Shown: positions 1,098-19,023 of the stretch, piece by piece | Layout: every line of letters starts with the position of its first letter | How positions within the stretch are numbered: the stretch's first letter is position 1 | The notes under the pieces: generated by a model | Told to the model about the DNA's origin: nothing | Database searches by the model: none | The model's input: the letters and a program-made list of their open reading frames with translations, nothing else | IMG/VR virus record: IMGVR_UViG_3300043100_000038 | Coordinates: 1 to 20,133 of that record | Reading direction: 5' to 3' (one strand) | Source: a virus | DNA length: 20,133 nt | Made by a program: the position numbers and the translations under genes

Positions 1098-1454
1098 TTA
1101 CACCACTGATGCGTCGACCGCCCATTCGATGCTATCGCGCACGCAATCGAGCGCGCAGATGGGGTTGTCGTAGGTGCCATCTCGCGTGACACCCACCCAC
1201 AACGCGCAACCGGCCAGCGTGGCATGGGGATAAAGGCGACACCGGAAATAAGCCTGCTCGATAGTGCGTATCTTGCCAAGCTCATCAACGAGCAGCACAT
1301 CACCGTGTGACTTATGCGGGGATAACTGCTCAATGTCGCTACAGTGCAGCAGGGCATATATTTCCGCCAATTCGTCGCCACTGTCAACGGGTGCGGAAAT
1401 AAATATCTGTGTGACTGCCCGCTTAAAAGGGTCGATCAGATATGCATGGCGCAT
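1098..1454 (-). CDS. DUF3846-like phage protein
   Basis: This 118-aa protein starts at an ATG whose A is the last base of the preceding stop codon (TAATG), a coupled start. It contains AEIYALLHCSDIEQL, then GDVLLVDELGK, and ends with LAGCALWVGVTRDG. A helix, an acidic VDExG turn and a final G-x-A-L-x-V-G strand match the pattern I associate with DUF3846, a small family common in phages and plasmids with no known activity. It is more divergent than the copy at 1-199, because the G-L-P-V-N segment is absent. Two relatives in one operon suggest duplication or separate acquisition. Family call moderate, function unknown. Confidence 0.6.
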   Translation of the reverse strand: MRHAYLIDPFKRAVTQIFISAPVDSGDELAEIYALLHCSDIEQLSPHKSHGDVLLVDELGKIRTIEQAYFRCRLYPHATLAGCALWVGVTRDGTYDNPICALDCVRDSIEWAVDASVV

Positions 1455-2173
1455 TACTTGCCCCGTGGAAAGAAATCACGAATGTCACCGAGTGGCGGCA
1501 AGCTGGTTTGCATGCCGGGACGCATCACACCTCTCACGGGGTCGCGTTCAAGTATCTGCTTTTGTTCACCCACCATCAGCACCATCGCATCGTCATAATC
1601 CCGATGGTTTGCAAAGGGCACGTTGCCCACCGGGCCGATGAGTTCGCAGAGCAGTGCATCACGGTCAAGGTTATAGAGTGAGCGGCATGGACTTGGACGG
1701 TGTTCGTAAATCGAGCACGCATTATCTTTGAGGAAAGGGCACGGGTTGTGATAACCGCTTTCTATATCGTCACGCTTTCTCACACCGGTGTAATGCTTTG
1801 GTTTGACTCCGATGCGCTTGCCAATCAACTCGGCCTCGGGTGAAAAGATAAGCACCGATTGATGACAGCAGTGAGAGCACCCACGCCTGCAGGCCGCATA
1901 AGGTTTGATAAGTTTTCCAAGCTCATCGAGTGCCGCCCATACCGCCTCAATCTTTGCATACACCGAGCGCGGACTTTTGAGCACTGCATTGAGTCTTTTG
2001 TGTTGAGCAGTCTTGAGCGGCATGATTCCCTTGTTCATGGCTTCAATTTTTTGCTCAAGCTCGCCACTAGATTTGATCTCAAGCCATCGCTCTGCTACCG
2101 CTTCACCATGAGCCTCAATCTCTGCCTTTGAGACATGATGCAACGGGTGCACTTGAGGTGTGGGAGCGTTCAT
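1454..2173 (-). CDS. YkgJ-family cysteine-cluster (zinc/iron-chelating) protein
   Basis: This 239-aa protein has an alpha-helical N-terminal half (about 1-90). It then carries a cysteine-cluster domain with ACRRGCSHCCHQSV near residue 94, followed by NPCPFLKDNACSIYEHRPSPCR near 142-164. The spacing C-x3-C-x2-CC ... CPFL ... C-x-IYxxRPxxCR is the signature of the YkgJ/CxxCxxCC family, thought to bind Zn or an Fe-S centre. Its biochemical role is unresolved. The start overlaps the upstream stop by 4 bp (ATGA) and the stop touches the next start (TAATG), so it is embedded in the leftward operon. Its role in a phage is unclear. Confidence 0.85.
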   Translation of the reverse strand: MNAPTPQVHPLHHVSKAEIEAHGEAVAERWLEIKSSGELEQKIEAMNKGIMPLKTAQHKRLNAVLKSPRSVYAKIEAVWAALDELGKLIKPYAACRRGCSHCCHQSVLIFSPEAELIGKRIGVKPKHYTGVRKRDDIESGYHNPCPFLKDNACSIYEHRPSPCRSLYNLDRDALLCELIGPVGNVPFANHRDYDDAMVLMVGEQKQILERDPVRGVMRPGMQTSLPPLGDIRDFFPRGK

Positions 2174-2538
2174 GTTTTGCGCGCTACAAAGGAGGATTGC
2201 TCAAGGTCTTTATCTTTGTTGACCTCATCGAGCAGCAGCATGGCGAAGAGCAGGCGGGGGTCGATATCGGAGGGTATTGGCTTGTCACTGTGAGCCTCAC
2301 TGATGGGTGCGAACCTCACAAAATTGCACGCTGAATCTATCTCTACTATGTCCCATCGACCATCACTGTCTCTATAGATAACTCTTTGATAAGGGTGACC
2401 GGTCTTAAGCTCGCCCGTTGCCATCAGGGCTCTCAAAACGTTCTCTATATCGTTGGTCACAGTCCGCTGCTTCGAGTGGTCACCGGTATCCTGGATAGCA
2501 CACAGGTTTAGGGTGTGAGTCTTGTATGTAGCAATCAT
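2170..2538 (-). CDS. Hypothetical protein, first gene of the leftward operon
   Basis: This 122-aa protein of unrecognised family begins MIATYKTHTLNLCAIQDTGD and is mixed charged, with a short region resembling a beta-sheet (GHPYQRVIYRDSDGRWDIVEID). It has no membrane segment or Cys cluster. The start at 2538 is well supported by the upstream sequence CGAGGGAATATG, the same type of ribosome-binding site as the H-NS-like gene in this operon. It overlaps the following YkgJ-type gene by 4 bp. Its leader (2539-2740) carries the CTAGG repeat cluster and a TATAAT box inside an inverted repeat. This gene and those downstream are probably regulated from there. Confidence 0.72.
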   Translation of the reverse strand: MIATYKTHTLNLCAIQDTGDHSKQRTVTNDIENVLRALMATGELKTGHPYQRVIYRDSDGRWDIVEIDSACNFVRFAPISEAHSDKPIPSDIDPRLLFAMLLLDEVNKDKDLEQSSFVARKT

Positions 2539-6145: not shown

Positions 6146-6658
6146 CTACTCTTCGTCATCGTCACCGGCAACGGTGGCATTCGTTAAATCGAGCGACACC
6201 GGCACCGAGTGGTTGAGCAGGCCTGACAGCTTGCCCACCTCTTCGGGTGTGGGGTGCACCTGCGCCCGTGCGATGCAGGCGCAGGTGCCACCCTCGCGCA
6301 ACGTCATGCTCAGTTTGCCGAACACGGCATCAGGAAAGATGAGATCACCTTTAGCCTTGCCGTTGCCCGAGTGCACGTGCATGCCCACGCCCGATAGTTC
6401 GCTATCCCACTTTACCGTGCCAAGCTGGGGGAACCGCACGTGTGTTAAATGCTCGGCATCGGGGCCTAACATATCGGGATCATCGGGCGGCGCATAGAAC
6501 GATTCGCGCAGGCCGGTGGCGAGCCCATCGAGCGCCGTGTTGGGCACATCAAACGCAAGTTTGATATCCACACACGACACTTCGGCATCACCGTGCAACT
6601 CGGTGCGCAGATTGAGGTGCGCAATTTTCATTGGGTGTTTCGTCAACTCAAGCATCAT
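6146..6658 (-). CDS. Conserved phage protein of unknown function in recombination operon
   Basis: This 170-aa protein looks all-beta. It has alternating hydrophobic strands with motifs such as LNLRTELHGD near the N-terminus, VRFPQLGTVKWDSELSG in the middle and GGTCACIARAQVHPT in the C-terminal third. It ends with acidic DDDEE. I recall similar proteins beside exonuclease/annealing genes in proteobacterial phages but know no assigned function. A single-strand-binding or accessory recombination role is conceivable from position only. The start at 6658 overlaps the upstream gene by 11 bp. A second ATG nine codons downstream (MKIAHLNL) is a possible alternative start. Confidence 0.68.
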   Translation of the reverse strand: MMLELTKHPMKIAHLNLRTELHGDAEVSCVDIKLAFDVPNTALDGLATGLRESFYAPPDDPDMLGPDAEHLTHVRFPQLGTVKWDSELSGVGMHVHSGNGKAKGDLIFPDAVFGKLSMTLREGGTCACIARAQVHPTPEEVGKLSGLLNHSVPVSLDLTNATVAGDDDEE

Positions 6659-8954: not shown

Positions 8955-9132
8955 GGTGCTCACCTCGGGTGAGAAGCCACAAGCGCGAAATCAGCACACG
9001 CGGCTCGGGATAGGTGTAACGCTGCCGCCACCATGCACGGCGCAGCGCCTTCGGGATGGTTCGCAGGGTTGGGCGGTAACTCATCGGCGCGCGCGCATCG
9101 AAGTGATACGCGCAGCGCGCGGCCCCGTTCAT
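8941..9132 (-). CDS. Small basic hypothetical protein, 63 aa
   Basis: This 63-aa protein begins MNGAARCAYHF and is strongly basic and aromatic (RRAWWRQRYTYPEPRVLISRLWLL). The ATG at 9132 overlaps the previous stop by 4 bp (ATGA), which fits this operon better than the longer frame to 9216. I recognise no family. The Trp/Arg-rich segment could bind nucleic acid or be a short hydrophobic helix. It overlaps the exonuclease gene by 14 bp. Confidence 0.55.
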   Translation of the reverse strand: MNGAARCAYHFDARAPMSYRPTLRTIPKALRRAWWRQRYTYPEPRVLISRLWLLTRGEHHECA

Positions 9133-9410
9133 TGCAGGCCACCGGCGCGCGCTTCGGCAATGACCTGGCACGGGCAGCGCGGTGCCTGGGTGCGCTCGAT
9201 GAGCACGCACAGCCACAAGCCGGGGGCATGTTCGGACTGCTGCAGGCCGCGCGCCTCGAATGCGTGCTCGAAGCCCTGCGCGTTTTTACGGTCAAGCGCT
9301 TCGGACCACACCGCGTCGGGATCATCACCCACCACGGTGATGAGTTTTCGATGGTCATATGCAACCGTTTCAAACACGGCAAGAAACGGCGGATTTTCAG
9401 GCTCGGTCAT
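9129..9410 (-). CDS. Hypothetical protein, first gene of leftward recombination operon
   Basis: This 93-aa protein begins MTEPENPPFLAVFETVAYDHRKLITVVGD. It looks like a small alpha/beta protein with no clear motif and a C-terminal Cys pair (APRCPCQV). I do not recognise it. The ATG at 9410 is preceded by GGGAG about 8 nt upstream, and a near-consensus promoter on the same strand lies at 9452-9480. It is therefore the promoter-proximal gene of the ten-gene leftward operon. It overlaps the next gene by 4 bp. Confidence 0.68.
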   Translation of the reverse strand: MTEPENPPFLAVFETVAYDHRKLITVVGDDPDAVWSEALDRKNAQGFEHAFEARGLQQSEHAPGLWLCVLIERTQAPRCPCQVIAEARAGGLQ

Positions 9411-9543: not shown

Positions 9544-9576
9544 AAGGGGCATCGAAGGGGCATCGAAGGGGCTTCG
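9544..9576 (+). repeat. 11-bp direct repeats (AAGGGGCATCG family), locus 1
   Basis: Three tandem 11-bp units are present, AAGGGGCATCG twice and AAGGGGCTTCG once. They are non-coding and lie inside the origin-like region. Identical or near-identical units recur within the O-like gene and before the endolysin gene. Confidence 0.9.
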
Positions 9577-9986: not shown

Positions 9987-10067
9987 ATGAACACCGCACC
10001 AACGGGACAGCGCCACCCCCCTTTTATACGCCTCACCGATGGGCCTGCACTGCATAACGCCTCGTGA
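9987..10067 (+). CDS. 26-aa leader ORF coupled to the O-like initiator
   Basis: An ATG at 9987 has AGGGAG about 8 nt upstream, the same kind of ribosome-binding site used by confirmed genes here (for example before 13508 and 18824). The peptide MNTAPTGQRHPPFIRLTDGP... has 26 residues and stops at TGA 10065-10067. That TGA overlaps a GTG (10064) that is the first in-frame start of the next gene. I recognise no domain. It may be a real micro-protein or a leader whose translation controls initiator synthesis. The ribosome-binding site and the overlap are the only evidence. Confidence 0.45.
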   Translation: MNTAPTGQRHPPFIRLTDGPALHNAS

Positions 10068-10078
10068 CGGGGGCGCAC

Positions 10079-11230
10079 ATGCAAGCGCGCAATTACGGGC
10101 GAGTCATGCCCGAATACTGGACCGGGCGCACCGGCCAGCGCATCCAGAAACACGGACCCGAAGCCGTGGTTGTGGGTGCCTATCTCATGTCAAGTCCGCA
10201 CAGTACGATGCTCGGTCTCTATCACCTGCCGCTGCTCTACATCGCGGAAGAAACCGGGCTCGGTTTTGAAGGGGCATCGAAGGGGCTTCAGGGGTGCATC
10301 GATGCGGGTTTCTGCAGCTACGATCACGGCACCCGTTTCGTGTGGGTGCACGAGATGGCGCGCTTCCAGATCGCGGACCATCTTGAGGCCAGCGACAAGC
10401 GTGTCAAGTGGATGCAAAAACTCTATGACGGCATGCCCGAAAATCCGTTTCTCACACCGTTTTTCGAGCACTATCACCGCGCGTTCAAACTCACCAACCG
10501 GCGCGTCTTTTCGCCCGATTCACTTAGCACAACTACAAGCCCCTTCGAAGGGGCATCAATGCCCCTTGCAAGCCCCTTCGAAGGGGCATCGAAGGGGGTG
10601 GGTGAAAAAGGCCCATCGAAGGGGTTGAAAAAGCAAGGGGCATCCAAGGGGCATCCAAGGGGCATCGAAGCCAGAAGCAGTAGCAGTAGCAGTAAACCCA
10701 GTGGTAAGGATAAGCCTTTGATACATCAAACCTCAGTGGTTGGGTTAGTTGGGTTGGTGGAAAAAGCAAGCCCCATCGAAGGGGCATCGAAGGGGCTTCA
10801 CGCGTTATCGCCAGCTTCGAGCGCAGAACCGCACGCCGACAAAGCGGCGCGCGGCACTCGCCTGCCGACCGGGTGGGTTTTGCCGCTGCCGTGGGGGCAT
10901 TGGGCGATGACCGAATGCGGGTTCGATGAGCACCGGGTGCGCGAGATCGCGGTGACGTTCGCGGACTACTGGCACGCGGTGGCGGGCGCGAAAGGTGTCA
11001 AGCTCGACTGGCTCGCCACGTGGCGCAACTGGTGCCGCAAAGAGCGCGATTACATCGCACAGGGCAACGGCCACCGCGCGAACGGCGCGGCCTACGACGA
11101 GCGCAGCCGTGACCGCAAACAGGCCTTTGCGGAACTGACGGGCGAAGCATCGGGCGATGACATACCGCCCGCCGATGTGGTCGACGTCGAAGCGCGTGAG
11201 GTGAGCCGTGACGCCATCACCAAGCATTAA
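10079..11230 (+). CDS. O-like phage replication initiator with internal iteron-like repeats
   Basis: This protein of about 383 residues starts at ATG 10079 behind a GGGGG stretch; a GTG at 10064 is an alternative start. The N-terminal domain (to about residue 130) has a winged-helix look (MQARNYGRVMPEYWTGRTGQ ... LGLYHLPLLYIAEETGLGF ... IDAGFCSYDHGTRFVWVHEM), like phage O/DnaD-type initiators. The middle is low complexity: 11-bp DNA repeats are translated as repeated EGASKG / SPFEGASKG units, then a Ser run. The C-terminal part has LDWLATWRNWCRKERDYI, a motif typical of phage replication proteins that contact the helicase loader. In lambda the origin iterons also lie inside gene O. The downstream P-like gene overlaps its end. 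Confidence 0.75.
   Translation: MQARNYGRVMPEYWTGRTGQRIQKHGPEAVVVGAYLMSSPHSTMLGLYHLPLLYIAEETGLGFEGASKGLQGCIDAGFCSYDHGTRFVWVHEMARFQIADHLEASDKRVKWMQKLYDGMPENPFLTPFFEHYHRAFKLTNRRVFSPDSLSTTTSPFEGASMPLASPFEGASKGVGEKGPSKGLKKQGASKGHPRGIEARSSSSSSKPSGKDKPLIHQTSVVGLVGLVEKASPIEGASKGLHALSPASSAEPHADKAARGTRLPTGWVLPLPWGHWAMTECGFDEHRVREIAVTFADYWHAVAGAKGVKLDWLATWRNWCRKERDYIAQGNGHRANGAAYDERSRDRKQAFAELTGEASGDDIPPADVVDVEAREVSRDAITKH
10269..10301 (+). repeat. 11-bp direct repeats, locus 2 (inside initiator gene)
   Basis: Three consecutive 11-bp units run AAGGGGCATCG, AAGGGGCTTCA and GGGGTGCATCG; the last is degenerate. They encode EGASKGLQGCI in the initiator N-terminal domain, so the repeat lies inside folded-domain coding sequence and not only in the linker. 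Confidence 0.8.
10537..10667. repeat. Iteron-like array with two perfect 16-bp palindromes, locus 3
   Basis: About nine 11-bp units occur in both orientations. GCCCCTTCGAAGGGGC, a perfect 16-bp palindrome, is at 10539-10554 and again at 10572-10587, exactly 33 bp (three units) apart. Further direct units lie at 10581-10591, 10635-10645, 10646-10656 and 10657-10667. The array encodes the low-complexity linker of the initiator and is the best candidate for initiator-binding sites. Confidence 0.88.
10768..10800. repeat. 11-bp repeats, locus 4 (inside initiator gene)
   Basis: Three units run AAGCCCCATCG, AAGGGGCATCG and AAGGGGCTTCA. The first two form an almost perfect 16-bp palindrome (10770-10785). 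They are in the linker-coding part of the initiator, about 100 bp after locus 3. Confidence 0.85.
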
Positions 11231-14542: not shown

Positions 14543-15044
14543 AGCCATCAAGGCGGTGATTGCAGAACTTGAGCAGGAATGCGCGCCCGCGCTTCAAAGC
14601 TATCTCGAAGCACGCGGCACCTATGGGCCTGATGATGAAGTGCTCGCGCGCGTGGTGAACGATCTATTGCGGCAGAACTCGCTTGCCATGCAACACGCCA
14701 CCTCTGCGATGTCACTCATGATCGCGCAGCACTTCGTTGAGCGCACCGACCGTGACAACCTTTCGTGTGCCCAACTACAGATGTTCGATACCGCTGCGGA
14801 CGTGCGTGAGTTTTTGCGCCATGCCACCCACCGGTGTGGCGATGGCACGACCATTCTGCAATCGTTCATGACGCGCGAGCAGGTGATTGCACGGCATGAG
14901 CGCAAGCGCACGAACAAGGCCCGCGTCGATGCGGCTTTTGACGAAAGCCAGCGCTTTACCGATGGCATCCTGCATTACATGGATGCGGGCTTGAGTTATG
15001 AAGATGCGGCGGTATCGCTGCGCGATGAACTCGCCACATCATGA
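14523..15044 (+). CDS. Hypothetical helical phage protein
   Basis: This 173-aa protein starts at ATG 14523, with GGAG 8 nt upstream, overlapping the ParB-like gene by 20 bp. It is predicted almost fully helical, with many charged heptads (KAVIAELEQECAPALQSYLEARG; SAMSLMIAQHFVERTDRDN). No catalytic motif, Cys cluster or membrane helix is seen. I do not recognise it. Coupling to the ParB-like gene upstream and the zinc-finger gene downstream (ATGA) makes an accessory regulatory role plausible but unproven. Confidence 0.65.
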   Translation: MSKRQPEAIKAVIAELEQECAPALQSYLEARGTYGPDDEVLARVVNDLLRQNSLAMQHATSAMSLMIAQHFVERTDRDNLSCAQLQMFDTAADVREFLRHATHRCGDGTTILQSFMTREQVIARHERKRTNKARVDAAFDESQRFTDGILHYMDAGLSYEDAAVSLRDELATS

Positions 15045-15325
15045 GCGGCCATCAGCCCGAAGGCGGCGAACTGCCACCGCCGCCCGCATCGAAGCGCCTG
15101 CACAAGTGCGAATGGCCCGGTTGCGAGCGCGTCATATCGCGCTCGATGTGGGGGTGCCGCGCGCACTGGTATGCGCTGCCGAACAACCTGCGCGCATGGA
15201 TCGGGCGCGCGTACCGGTACGGCATCGACACCGGCACACACCCCACGCGCAGCTATGTCGACGCACACCGCGCCGCGCTCGCATGGGTGGCCGAACGTGA
15301 AGCGGAGAACAAGCATGAATCCTAA
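15041..15325 (+). CDS. Small zinc-finger-like phage protein
   Basis: This 94-aa protein carries HKCEWPGCERVISRSMWGCRAHWYALPNNLRAWIGRAY. Cys-x4-Cys, then Cys-x2-His, is a probable single zinc site, and HW-x-xLPxxLRxxIxxAY is a conserved tail I have seen in several phage proteins of unknown function. The remaining C-terminus is a short charged helix. The start overlaps the previous stop (ATGA), and the 3' end overlaps the next gene by 11 bp. Nucleic-acid binding is likely from the fold but unproven. Confidence 0.72.
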   Translation: MSGHQPEGGELPPPPASKRLHKCEWPGCERVISRSMWGCRAHWYALPNNLRAWIGRAYRYGIDTGTHPTRSYVDAHRAALAWVAEREAENKHES

Positions 15326-15620
15326 AGACCGTGACGATTTGCGTTTTGGTGATGTTATCGAATGTTTGCATCTTTCAACGGGTACGACTAACGCGCTATT
15401 GCGCAGCAGGATCGGAACGATTGACGCCTTATGCGCACAGACCCGTAGCAGCCTGATGAAAATCGAAGGTATTGCAACCGGTAGTGTTGAGCACATCAGG
15501 GCAGCACTCGCAAACCGGTGCGGTCGCGCATTAACGGGTGATCGTGACGATCCGCAGAAAATCGAACGCAGGCACAGAGAATTTATCGCGTATCTGACCG
15601 AACACAACATTGAGTTATGA
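15315..15620 (+). CDS. RNA polymerase alpha-subunit C-terminal-domain-like small protein
   Basis: This 101-aa protein starts at ATG 15315; the frame is open further upstream but only as shadow sequence. Residues 17-70 align well with the RpoA alpha-CTD, for example LHLSTGTTNALLRSRIGTIDAL and LMKIEGIATGSVEHIRAAL against bacterial 'L-x-L-[ST]-x-R-[AS]-x-N-x-L-x...I-x-x-[IV]-G-x-L...LLK-x-x-x-x-G-x-KSL-x-E-I-K'. In my alignment the UP-element Arg (E. coli R265) is Gly and N268 is kept. No N-terminal RpoA domain is present, so it cannot assemble core enzyme by itself. It may bind host RNA polymerase or DNA. The DNA looks less GC-rich than its neighbours, suggesting a separate origin. It overlaps the next gene (ATGA). 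Confidence 0.8.
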   Translation: MNPKDRDDLRFGDVIECLHLSTGTTNALLRSRIGTIDALCAQTRSSLMKIEGIATGSVEHIRAALANRCGRALTGDRDDPQKIERRHREFIAYLTEHNIEL

Positions 15621-16786
15621 GCATGTTAATGCGCTCGCCTCTCGTGTTCGGCTCGGTGTGCAGCGGTATCGAAGCCGCTTCATGCGCCTGGCTGCCGCTC
15701 GGGTGGCGGTGCGCTTTTGTTTCGGATATCGACGCATTTTCCTGCGCCTTGCTCGCCCATCGTTATCCCGATGTGCCGAACCACGGCGATATGACCGCAC
15801 ACACGGGGTGGCCTCATGCAACTCTCGATGTTTTCGCCGGGGGAACTCCCTGTCAGAGCTACAGCGTCGCCGGCAGCAGAGCAGGCCTGGACGATGAGCG
15901 TGGTGCACTCATGCTCGCCTTCGCTCACCTTGCTCACCGATACGCTGCCCGCTGGGTCGTTTGGGAAAATGTCGCCGGGGTTTTGTCAGTGGACAACGGA
16001 CGGGCTTTTGGTGCCCTGCTCGGGACACTGGCAAAGCTCGGGTATGGGTTCGCATACCGGATTTTTGACGCTCAATTCTTCGGCCTGGCCCAGCGCCGCA
16101 ACCGTGTGTTCGTTGTCGGATATCCTGGAGACTGGCGAGCACCTGCGGCGGTACTTTTTGAGCGCGCGGGCCTGCTCGGGCATCCTGCGCCGCGCCGCAA
16201 AGCGGGGCAAAGTATTACCGGCACACTTGGCGCACGCACTTCGGCAGGTGGCGGGCTCGGCACCGACTTCGAATGTGATGGAGGCCTCATCGGCAACACG
16301 CTCACCGCCAGTAGCGGTCGTCACGTAAGCCATCACACGACGCTCGTGCCCGAAGTGGCAGGCGCGCTCACCGGCAGCAACGAGCGGCAGGATGCCGCCG
16401 TTGAGACTTTCGTGATTGCCCACACGCTGCGCGCCGATGGCTTCGATGCAAGTGAGGATGGCACCGGGCGCGGCACGCCGCTTGTGCCAATTGCCTTTGG
16501 CGGGCAGATGTCGACGCCGTTCATGAGCAGTGATTTGAGCAACACGCTCCAGGCCAAAAATCCGGCAGCAGTTTCGCAACCCGGTGTCGGTGTGCGCCGC
16601 CTCACGCCGCGCGAATGCGAGCGCCTGCAGGGCTTTCAGGATGACTACACACTCATACCGTATCGCGGCGGGCTCGCTGCCGATGCGCCGCGATATCGTG
16701 CGCTCGGCAACTCGATGGCGGTGCCGGTGATGCGGTGGATAGGCGAGCGCATTGCCATGGTTGATTCAATCCTGACGGGGCCATGA
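15617..16786 (+). CDS. C5-cytosine DNA methyltransferase
   Basis: This 389-aa protein has all the core motifs. Motif I is FGSVCSGIEAASCAW (about 11-25), motif IV is GGTPCQSYSVAG with catalytic Cys79, motif VI is WENVAG (Glu117, Asn118), motif VIII is QRRNRVFVVG (about 159-168), motif IX is RRLTPRECERLQGFQ, and motif X is YRALGNSMAVPV. Between VIII and IX, about 150 residues form the target-recognition region with repeated 'x-x-TLxA' elements. The enzyme moves a methyl group from AdoMet to C5 of cytosine. No partner nuclease is adjacent, so it is an orphan phage methylase, likely for protection from host restriction. It overlaps the genes on both sides (ATGA). Confidence 0.95.
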   Translation: MSMLMRSPLVFGSVCSGIEAASCAWLPLGWRCAFVSDIDAFSCALLAHRYPDVPNHGDMTAHTGWPHATLDVFAGGTPCQSYSVAGSRAGLDDERGALMLAFAHLAHRYAARWVVWENVAGVLSVDNGRAFGALLGTLAKLGYGFAYRIFDAQFFGLAQRRNRVFVVGYPGDWRAPAAVLFERAGLLGHPAPRRKAGQSITGTLGARTSAGGGLGTDFECDGGLIGNTLTASSGRHVSHHTTLVPEVAGALTGSNERQDAAVETFVIAHTLRADGFDASEDGTGRGTPLVPIAFGGQMSTPFMSSDLSNTLQAKNPAAVSQPGVGVRRLTPRECERLQGFQDDYTLIPYRGGLAADAPRYRALGNSMAVPVMRWIGERIAMVDSILTGP

Positions 16787-18823: not shown

Positions 18824-18973
18824 ATGATTACGCTCTCACTGCTGCTGCTCGTGGTGGCGCTCGTGCTGTTCGTGCTCGCCGCGCTCGCGGTGCCGGTGCC
18901 GCGCGTCAATCTCGTGGCGGCGGGCCTTGCTTGCTGGGTGCTCGCGCAGATCATCGGGCAGATCGTCCGATAA
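18824..18973 (+). CDS. 49-aa two-helix membrane protein
   Basis: This 49-aa protein starts at ATG 18824, with AGGGAG 7 nt upstream, and stops at 18971-18973. It is almost entirely hydrophobic, MITLSLLLLVVALVLFVLAA followed by VPVPRVNLVAAGLACWVLAQII. Two membrane segments are joined by a short Pro/Arg/Asn turn. Similar small phage proteins with 'RVNLxxxGLAxWVLxxII' are known to me as unassigned membrane proteins in lysis regions. It may be a second holin or antiholin. The endolysin gene starts 50 bp later, after an 11-bp repeat array. Confidence 0.72.
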   Translation: MITLSLLLLVVALVLFVLAALAVPVPRVNLVAAGLACWVLAQIIGQIVR

Positions 18974-19015
18974 GCCCCTTCGAAGGCCCTTCGAAGCCCC
19001 ATCAAAGCCCCTTCG
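18972..19015 (-). repeat. 11-bp repeats, locus 5 (before endolysin)
   Basis: Four tandem 11-bp units occur: AAGCCCCTTCG, AAGGCCCTTCG, AAGCCCCATCA and AAGCCCCTTCG. They are the complement of the AAGGGGCATCG family seen in the origin and initiator gene, 8 kb away. They occupy the gap between the 49-aa membrane protein stop and the endolysin ATG at 19024, leaving no room for a normal ribosome-binding site. Confidence 0.88.
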
Positions 19016-19023
19016 GTGTCCCG

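What the first reader, a model, noticed from the sequence alone, without database searches (positions are those of the whole stretch)
15315..15620. Stand-alone RNA polymerase alpha-CTD-like phage protein with altered DNA-contact residue
The protein aligns over about 55 residues with the RpoA C-terminal domain but has no alpha N-terminal domain. The UP-element arginine (R265 in E. coli) appears as Gly while N268 is kept. Such a protein could compete with host alpha-CTD for activators or redirect RNA polymerase. It sits between a zinc-finger gene and a methyltransferase, and its DNA seems lower in GC than neighbours.
Basis: partly seen in the sequence, partly recalled or inferred. Interest (0 to 1): 0.7.

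Follow-up and report, generated by a model that had tools for sequence, protein, structure and literature searches.

The report
Phage-encoded RNA-polymerase alpha-tail look-alike
A temperate phage carries a small, rare accessory gene for a protein shaped like the tail domain of the bacterial RNA polymerase alpha subunit, but with most of the residues that grip DNA changed; other phages carry similar, untested proteins, so it is a plausible but unproven way of touching the host's transcription.

Summary
Window 15315-15620 (+) encodes a 101-aa protein whose residues 15-66 match Pfam RNA_pol_A_CTD above the curated cut-off (31 bits vs 23.8); generic helix-hairpin-helix models stay far below theirs. 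A relatives-based AlphaFold2 model matches RpoA alpha-CTD first (Z 12.4). There is no alpha N-terminal domain. R265 aligns with Gly and N268 is kept; G296, K298, N294 and E302 are also changed. Eight other phage alpha-CTDs that I aligned keep Arg (7) or Lys (1) at 265. The gene is compositionally foreign (GC 0.497, GC3 0.50). It fills a variable slot between a zinc-finger gene and a C5-methyltransferase: related phages have nothing or another small gene there. Two relatives carry an alpha-CTD elsewhere, beside the YqaJ exonuclease. Phage alpha-CTD proteins are already annotated (Bacillus Goe8, Microbacterium Mazun, Rhodococcus Finch and others) but I found none characterised. Best reading: an accessory protein that kept the alpha-CTD fold but acts mainly through protein contacts, not UP-element binding. 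A new member of a known, uncharacterised kind.

The parts
15315..15620 (+). alpha-CTD-like gene, 101 aa
   Evidence: ORF; PF03118 E=2.1e-7 above cut-off; PDB alpha-CTD hits
15357..15512 (+). alpha-CTD domain (residues 15-66)
   Evidence: PF03118 boundaries; model core pLDDT 91-93
15381..15383 (+). codon 23 (Gly) at the position of E. coli RpoA R265
   Evidence: alignment
15552..15602 (+). extra C-terminal helix (residues 80-96), not part of the alpha-CTD profile
   Evidence: AF2 secondary structure; amphipathic moment not significant (7% of shuffles)
15304..15307 (+). GGAG, ribosome-binding-site-like, 7 nt before the ATG
   Evidence: read from the sequence
15041..15325 (+). upstream C-x4-C-x10-C-x2-H zinc-finger-like small protein; its end overlaps the alpha-CTD start by 11 nt
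   Evidence: PHROG 18063 E=1.9e-19; 13 relatives in viral contigs
15617..16786 (+). C5-cytosine DNA methyltransferase; ATGA overlap with the alpha-CTD stop
   Evidence: PF00145 E=4e-46

Best explanation
Shown: this is a rare, compositionally foreign accessory gene of a temperate phage, encoding a free-standing domain of the RNA polymerase alpha-CTD family, placed within a rightward gene run with overlapping neighbours. Inferred: it keeps the fold but has lost most of the residues with which alpha-CTD grips the minor groove of UP elements, so it most likely works through protein contacts. Either it attaches to a component of the host transcription machinery or its activators, or to a co-encoded phage DNA-binding protein (such as the zinc-finger neighbour), and so tunes transcription during infection or lysogeny. 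Partner and direction of the effect are not known.
For: Family: PF03118 above cut-off, HhH models below; PDB sequence hits are alpha-CTDs; AF2 model built with two relatives matches alpha-CTD at Z 12.4 and other phage alpha-CTD proteins. Accessory gene: lowest GC among the phage's genes; slot empty in L005, filled by an unrelated ~75-aa gene in L003 and L024 and by other genes in G058; alpha-CTD found in 3 of 14 records (the window and 13 that share the zinc-finger gene) and 0 of 66 further related records. Loss of DNA contacts: R265G, N294G, G296A, K298G, E302H, whereas alpha-CTDs of the relatives G005 and G006 keep R265, N268, G296, K/R298, S299 and E302. Operon: starts and stops overlap on both sides, no promoter-like site in 14900-15750.
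Against: No binding, expression or phenotype data. The protein-contact patches known from E. coli (261, 287) are also changed, so retained protein contacts are not shown by sequence. Without the two relatives the structure prediction fails (pLDDT 44), so the model is partly driven by its alignment. No close homologue exists, so purifying selection cannot be measured.
Confidence: 0.45

Rival explanations
1. It is a DNA-binding helix-hairpin-helix accessory protein of the phage's DNA-modification or recombination modules and has nothing to do with transcription: the alpha-CTD fold is re-used as a plain DNA- or protein-binding module.
For: It sits directly before a C5-methyltransferase; alpha-CTDs of the two relatives sit beside the RecE/YqaJ-like exonuclease; elsewhere in phages the domain is joined to NinX, to a pyrophosphatase domain and to an HNH-type zinc knuckle, which suggests a general-purpose module.
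Against: Scores clearly as alpha-CTD and not as generic HhH; the second Gly of the hairpin (G296) and the basic residue (K298) that HhH DNA contacts use are missing; the methyltransferase neighbour is not tied to it, since close relatives have the methyltransferase without this gene.
Confidence: 0.27
2. One reading: a competitor that binds the host activators or sigma in place of host alpha-CTD, or that redirects RNA polymerase.
For: Phages are known to attack this very domain: T4 Alt and ModA ADP-ribosylate Arg265 (PMC2988021) and phiKMV-like Rac triggers cleavage that removes alpha-CTD (PMC7552054). A free alpha-CTD without DNA grip would be a natural decoy.
Against: Residues of the E. coli 261 and 287 determinants are not preserved, and only about a quarter of residues match E. 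coli alpha-CTD. The host is unknown, so host-specific contacts could not be compared.
Confidence: 0.15
3. A decaying or passenger gene, acquired from elsewhere, without a function for the phage.
For: Foreign composition, rare, DNA-contact residues eroded, no relative found in 2.9 million viral contigs by close search.
Against: The frame is intact for 101 codons with a good start, a GGAG site and tight overlaps with both neighbours; hydrophobic core positions of the family are kept; the fold is predicted with confidence in the core.
Confidence: 0.13

Closest known systems
RpoA C-terminal domain (PF03118), e.g. E. coli and B. subtilis alpha-CTD
   Same: Profile above cut-off, same predicted fold over residues 8-75, N268 and S299 equivalents and hydrophobic core
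   Different: No alpha N-terminal domain or linker; R265, N294, G296, K298, E302 and the 261/287 patches changed; extra C-terminal helix
Annotated phage alpha-CTD proteins: Bacillus phage Goe8 'RNA polymerase subunit alpha', Microbacterium phages Mazun and Morrill 'DNA binding protein', Rhodococcus phage Finch, Mycobacterium phages Mithril and Marley1013, uncultured Caudovirales
   Same: Phage-encoded, no complete alpha subunit, a PF03118-type domain
   Different: Those aligned (Goe8, Mazun, Morrill, Marley1013) have extra sequence on one side of the domain and keep Arg at position 265; no tblastn match of the window protein to the phage collection
alpha-CTD proteins of the related phages G005 (L017) and G006 (L016)
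   Same: Same phage group (shared zinc-finger gene); PF03118 at 42-43 bits
   Different: 27-29% identical only, different genome position beside YqaJ, DNA-contact residues kept; the G006 one is joined to a ~90-aa N-terminal part
Morganella phage Mecenats66 ORF34, NinX (PF10765) joined to an alpha-CTD
   Same: Degenerate contact residues: Lys at 265, Gly at 298
   Different: Fusion to NinX, 187 aa

Membership tests
RNA_pol_A_CTD domain family (PF03118) | Profile match above the curated cut-off | tested here: met
   31.0 bits vs 23.8, E=2.1e-7, profile positions 15-66 of 67
RNA_pol_A_CTD domain family (PF03118) | alpha-CTD fold (compact helical domain with helix-hairpin-helix) | tested here: met
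   AF2 core pLDDT 91-93 with a 3-row alignment; best matches alpha-CTD, Z 12.4 over 67 residues, rmsd 1.7, with recombinase HhH domains (Dmc1, RAD51) at 9.6 and lower. Caveat: prediction without relatives fails
RNA polymerase alpha subunit (RpoA) | Minor-groove contact residues R265, N268, N294, G296, K298, S299, E302 | tested here: not met
   Only N268 and S299 kept; these are functional rather than fold-defining residues
RNA polymerase alpha subunit (RpoA) | N-terminal domain for dimerisation and core assembly | tested here: not met
   101 aa; NCBIfam rpoA (TIGR02027) matches positions 236-290 of 298 only, 25.6 bits vs cut-off 227.8
RNA polymerase alpha subunit (RpoA) | Binds RNA polymerase core, UP elements or activators | not testable with these tools
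   needs a binding assay
Generic helix-hairpin-helix families (HHH_5, HHH_2) | Profile match above the curated cut-off | tested here: not met
   15.8 and 12.8 bits vs 27
Phage NinX-alpha-CTD fusions | PF10765 domain before the alpha-CTD | tested here: not met
   no PF10765 match in the window protein

The most novel reading that the evidence does not exclude
A phage alpha-CTD decoy that has shed DNA binding and acts purely through proteins, sequestering a host activator or sigma surface or bridging a phage zinc-finger protein to RNA polymerase; a domain that most phages of this kind keep DNA-competent has here been turned into a protein-only regulator.
Probability: 0.15. Interest if true: 0.65.

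Novelty: new member of a known kind. Interest (0 to 1): 0.36.

Why it matters
Phages attack or modify host alpha-CTD (T4 Alt and ModA on Arg265, phiKMV-like Rac by cleavage); free alpha-CTD-like proteins carried by phages would be a further way of reaching the same control point. They are scattered over many phages, often joined to other small domains, and I found no report that tests one. The contrast between DNA-competent-looking forms in two relatives and the degenerate form here gives a natural comparison.

Tried and rejected
Close homologues of the window protein: none in phages, plasmids, viral contigs or PHROGs. The single genome contigs match (L002, Mycolicibacterium) has no PF03118 match at that place and weakly matches nitroreductase, so it is taken as a chance match. 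Idea that the N-terminus (DDLRFGDVIE) is left over from the gene that usually fills the slot (DDLKPGDVIE in L003): 1 of 10000 shuffles reaches the score, but a spurious ORF of the window scores higher, so it is not claimed. Idea that the zinc-finger neighbour is the same as the zinc knuckle fused to alpha-CTD in phage Marley1013: only a 14-residue match, E=0.01, and Marley's part belongs to HNH families; kept as a weak hint. Recent capture of the host's own rpoA: unlikely, since identity to RpoA is only about 19-33% over the domain and Bacillus alpha-CTD scores best in the PDB; the host itself could not be determined. Defence-system link: no PADLOC match for this gene or seven other window proteins. 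HhH recombinases (Dmc1, RAD51) score lower than alpha-CTD in the structural list. Papers: searches for phage-encoded alpha-CTD proteins returned no study of one; this covers open-licence papers only.

Full report
What is there. It starts 11 nt before the end of the preceding gene, has GGAG seven bases before the ATG, and its stop overlaps the methyltransferase start as ATGA. The window is a 20,133-base IMG/VR virus record with a serine-recombinase-type integrase, RecE/YqaJ-like exonuclease, RusA, two DNA methyltransferases, a minor tail protein and a GH19-type gene, so a temperate tailed phage, probably a fragment.

Family. Residues 15-66 match Pfam RNA_pol_A_CTD with 31 bits, above the curated cut-off of 23.8; HHH_5 and HHH_2 reach 15.8 and 12.8 bits, below 27. 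The PDB sequence search puts RNAP alpha chains first, best B. subtilis alpha-CTD at E=3e-4. An AlphaFold2 model from a three-row alignment has core pLDDT 91-93. Its best Foldseek matches are alpha-CTDs and the structural aligner gives Z 12.4 over 67 residues, rmsd 1.7; HhH domains of Dmc1 and RAD51 come lower, at 9.6 and less. Without the two relatives the prediction is poor (pLDDT 44), so sequence profiles carry the identification and the model is supporting evidence. PHROGs has no family for it.

Residues. With E. coli RpoA numbering (offset 242, no gaps through the contact positions) R265 is Gly, N268 Asn, N294 Gly, G296 Ala, K298 Gly, S299 Ser, E302 His. I extracted eight other phage alpha-CTDs (Goe8, Mazun, Morrill, V16, Marley1013, Mecenats66, G005, G006): seven keep Arg at 265, one has Lys (Mecenats66, which also has Gly at 298). 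A further unannotated scaffold, MT835636, also has Arg. The two relatives in the same phage group keep R265, N268, G296, K or R298, S299, E302. So the loss is a feature of this protein and not of phage alpha-CTDs in general. The activator-facing (287) and sigma-facing (261) patches defined in E. coli are changed as well. The roles of these residues are established knowledge; for Arg265 the role in UP-element and CRP contact is also stated in PMC2988021.

Origin and context. The gene has GC 0.497 and GC3 0.50; no in-frame 306-base stretch of the other phage genes (2708 tested, excluding two left-end genes that are also AT-rich) is as low. Thirteen viral contigs share the upstream zinc-finger gene. 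In L005 that gene is followed directly by the methyltransferase; L003 and L024 have a different small gene, with GDVIEV near its start, in the slot; in G058 the slot holds other genes. It is therefore a variable slot, and the alpha-CTD gene is one of its occupants. PF03118 occurs in 3 of 14 records of this group including the window and in none of 66 other records with a related methyltransferase or exonuclease; many of these records are fragments, so the counts are lower bounds. In the two other positive records, G005 and G006, the alpha-CTD lies elsewhere, beside the YqaJ exonuclease gene, in G006 as the C-terminal part of a 172-aa protein.

What is known. Phage proteins with this domain are already in databases: uncultured Caudovirales 'RNA polymerase, alpha subunit, C-terminal', Rhodococcus phage Finch, Mycobacterium phage Mithril, Bacillus phage Goe8, Microbacterium phages Mazun and Morrill, Ruegeria phage V16, Mycobacterium phage Marley1013, Morganella phage Mecenats66. 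They differ in their partner domains: NinX, a pyrophosphatase, an HNH-type zinc knuckle. I found no study of any of them in the open-licence library. Known phage attacks on alpha-CTD use modification (Alt, ModA; PMC2988021) or cleavage (Rac; PMC7552054), not a copy of the domain.

How it most likely works. Shown: membership in the domain family, absence of the alpha N-terminal domain, loss of most DNA-contact residues, accessory and compositionally foreign nature. Inferred: since the fold is kept and the DNA grip is not, the protein probably acts by protein contact. The partner cannot be named from sequence. Competition for E. coli-type activators is possible but gets no support from the residues. 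A DNA- or protein-binding module of the modification or recombination genes is the main rival, and a passenger gene the null.

Verdict. Observation confirmed; interpretation partly supported; a new member of a known but uncharacterised kind, of moderate interest.

Noticed in passing
window 9552-9570, 10257-10300, 10535-10677, 10756-10799, 18972-19022: An 11-base periodic repeat (GGGGCATCGAA / TCGAAGGGGCA); TCGAAGGG occurs 17 times against 0.5 expected. It lies largely inside the gene 10064-11230 (no Pfam family) and at 18.9-19.0 kb; looks like iterons or a dispersed short repeat.
   Followed up: partly
L016:1465-1980 (-) and L017:1262-1725 (+): In two related phages an alpha-CTD gene sits beside the YqaJ exonuclease gene; in G006 it is joined to a ~90-aa part that by eye resembles the separate small protein at window 9129-9410.
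   Followed up: partly
L020:3662-4222 (Morganella phage Mecenats66 ORF34): NinX (P22 nin region, unknown function) joined to an alpha-CTD, a possible clue to what NinX does.
   Followed up: no
L110:1423-2286 (Ruegeria phage V16) and L111:1483-1962 (Mycobacterium phage Marley1013): alpha-CTD joined to a pyrophosphatase-type domain, and alpha-CTD joined to an HNH-type zinc knuckle.
   Followed up: no
L003:606-836, L024:107-325, L007 near 6200-6400: The gene that fills the slot in some relatives: a 64-77-aa family beginning 'LRPGDVIEV', SH3-like by its motif; no significant Pfam match for the L003 copy.
   Followed up: partly
window 1454-2538 (-): Two genes near the left end are also AT-rich (GC 0.50-0.52); one has a CxxCxxCC zinc/iron-chelating domain (PF03692). 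Possible lysogenic-conversion or host genes next to the integrase.
   Followed up: no
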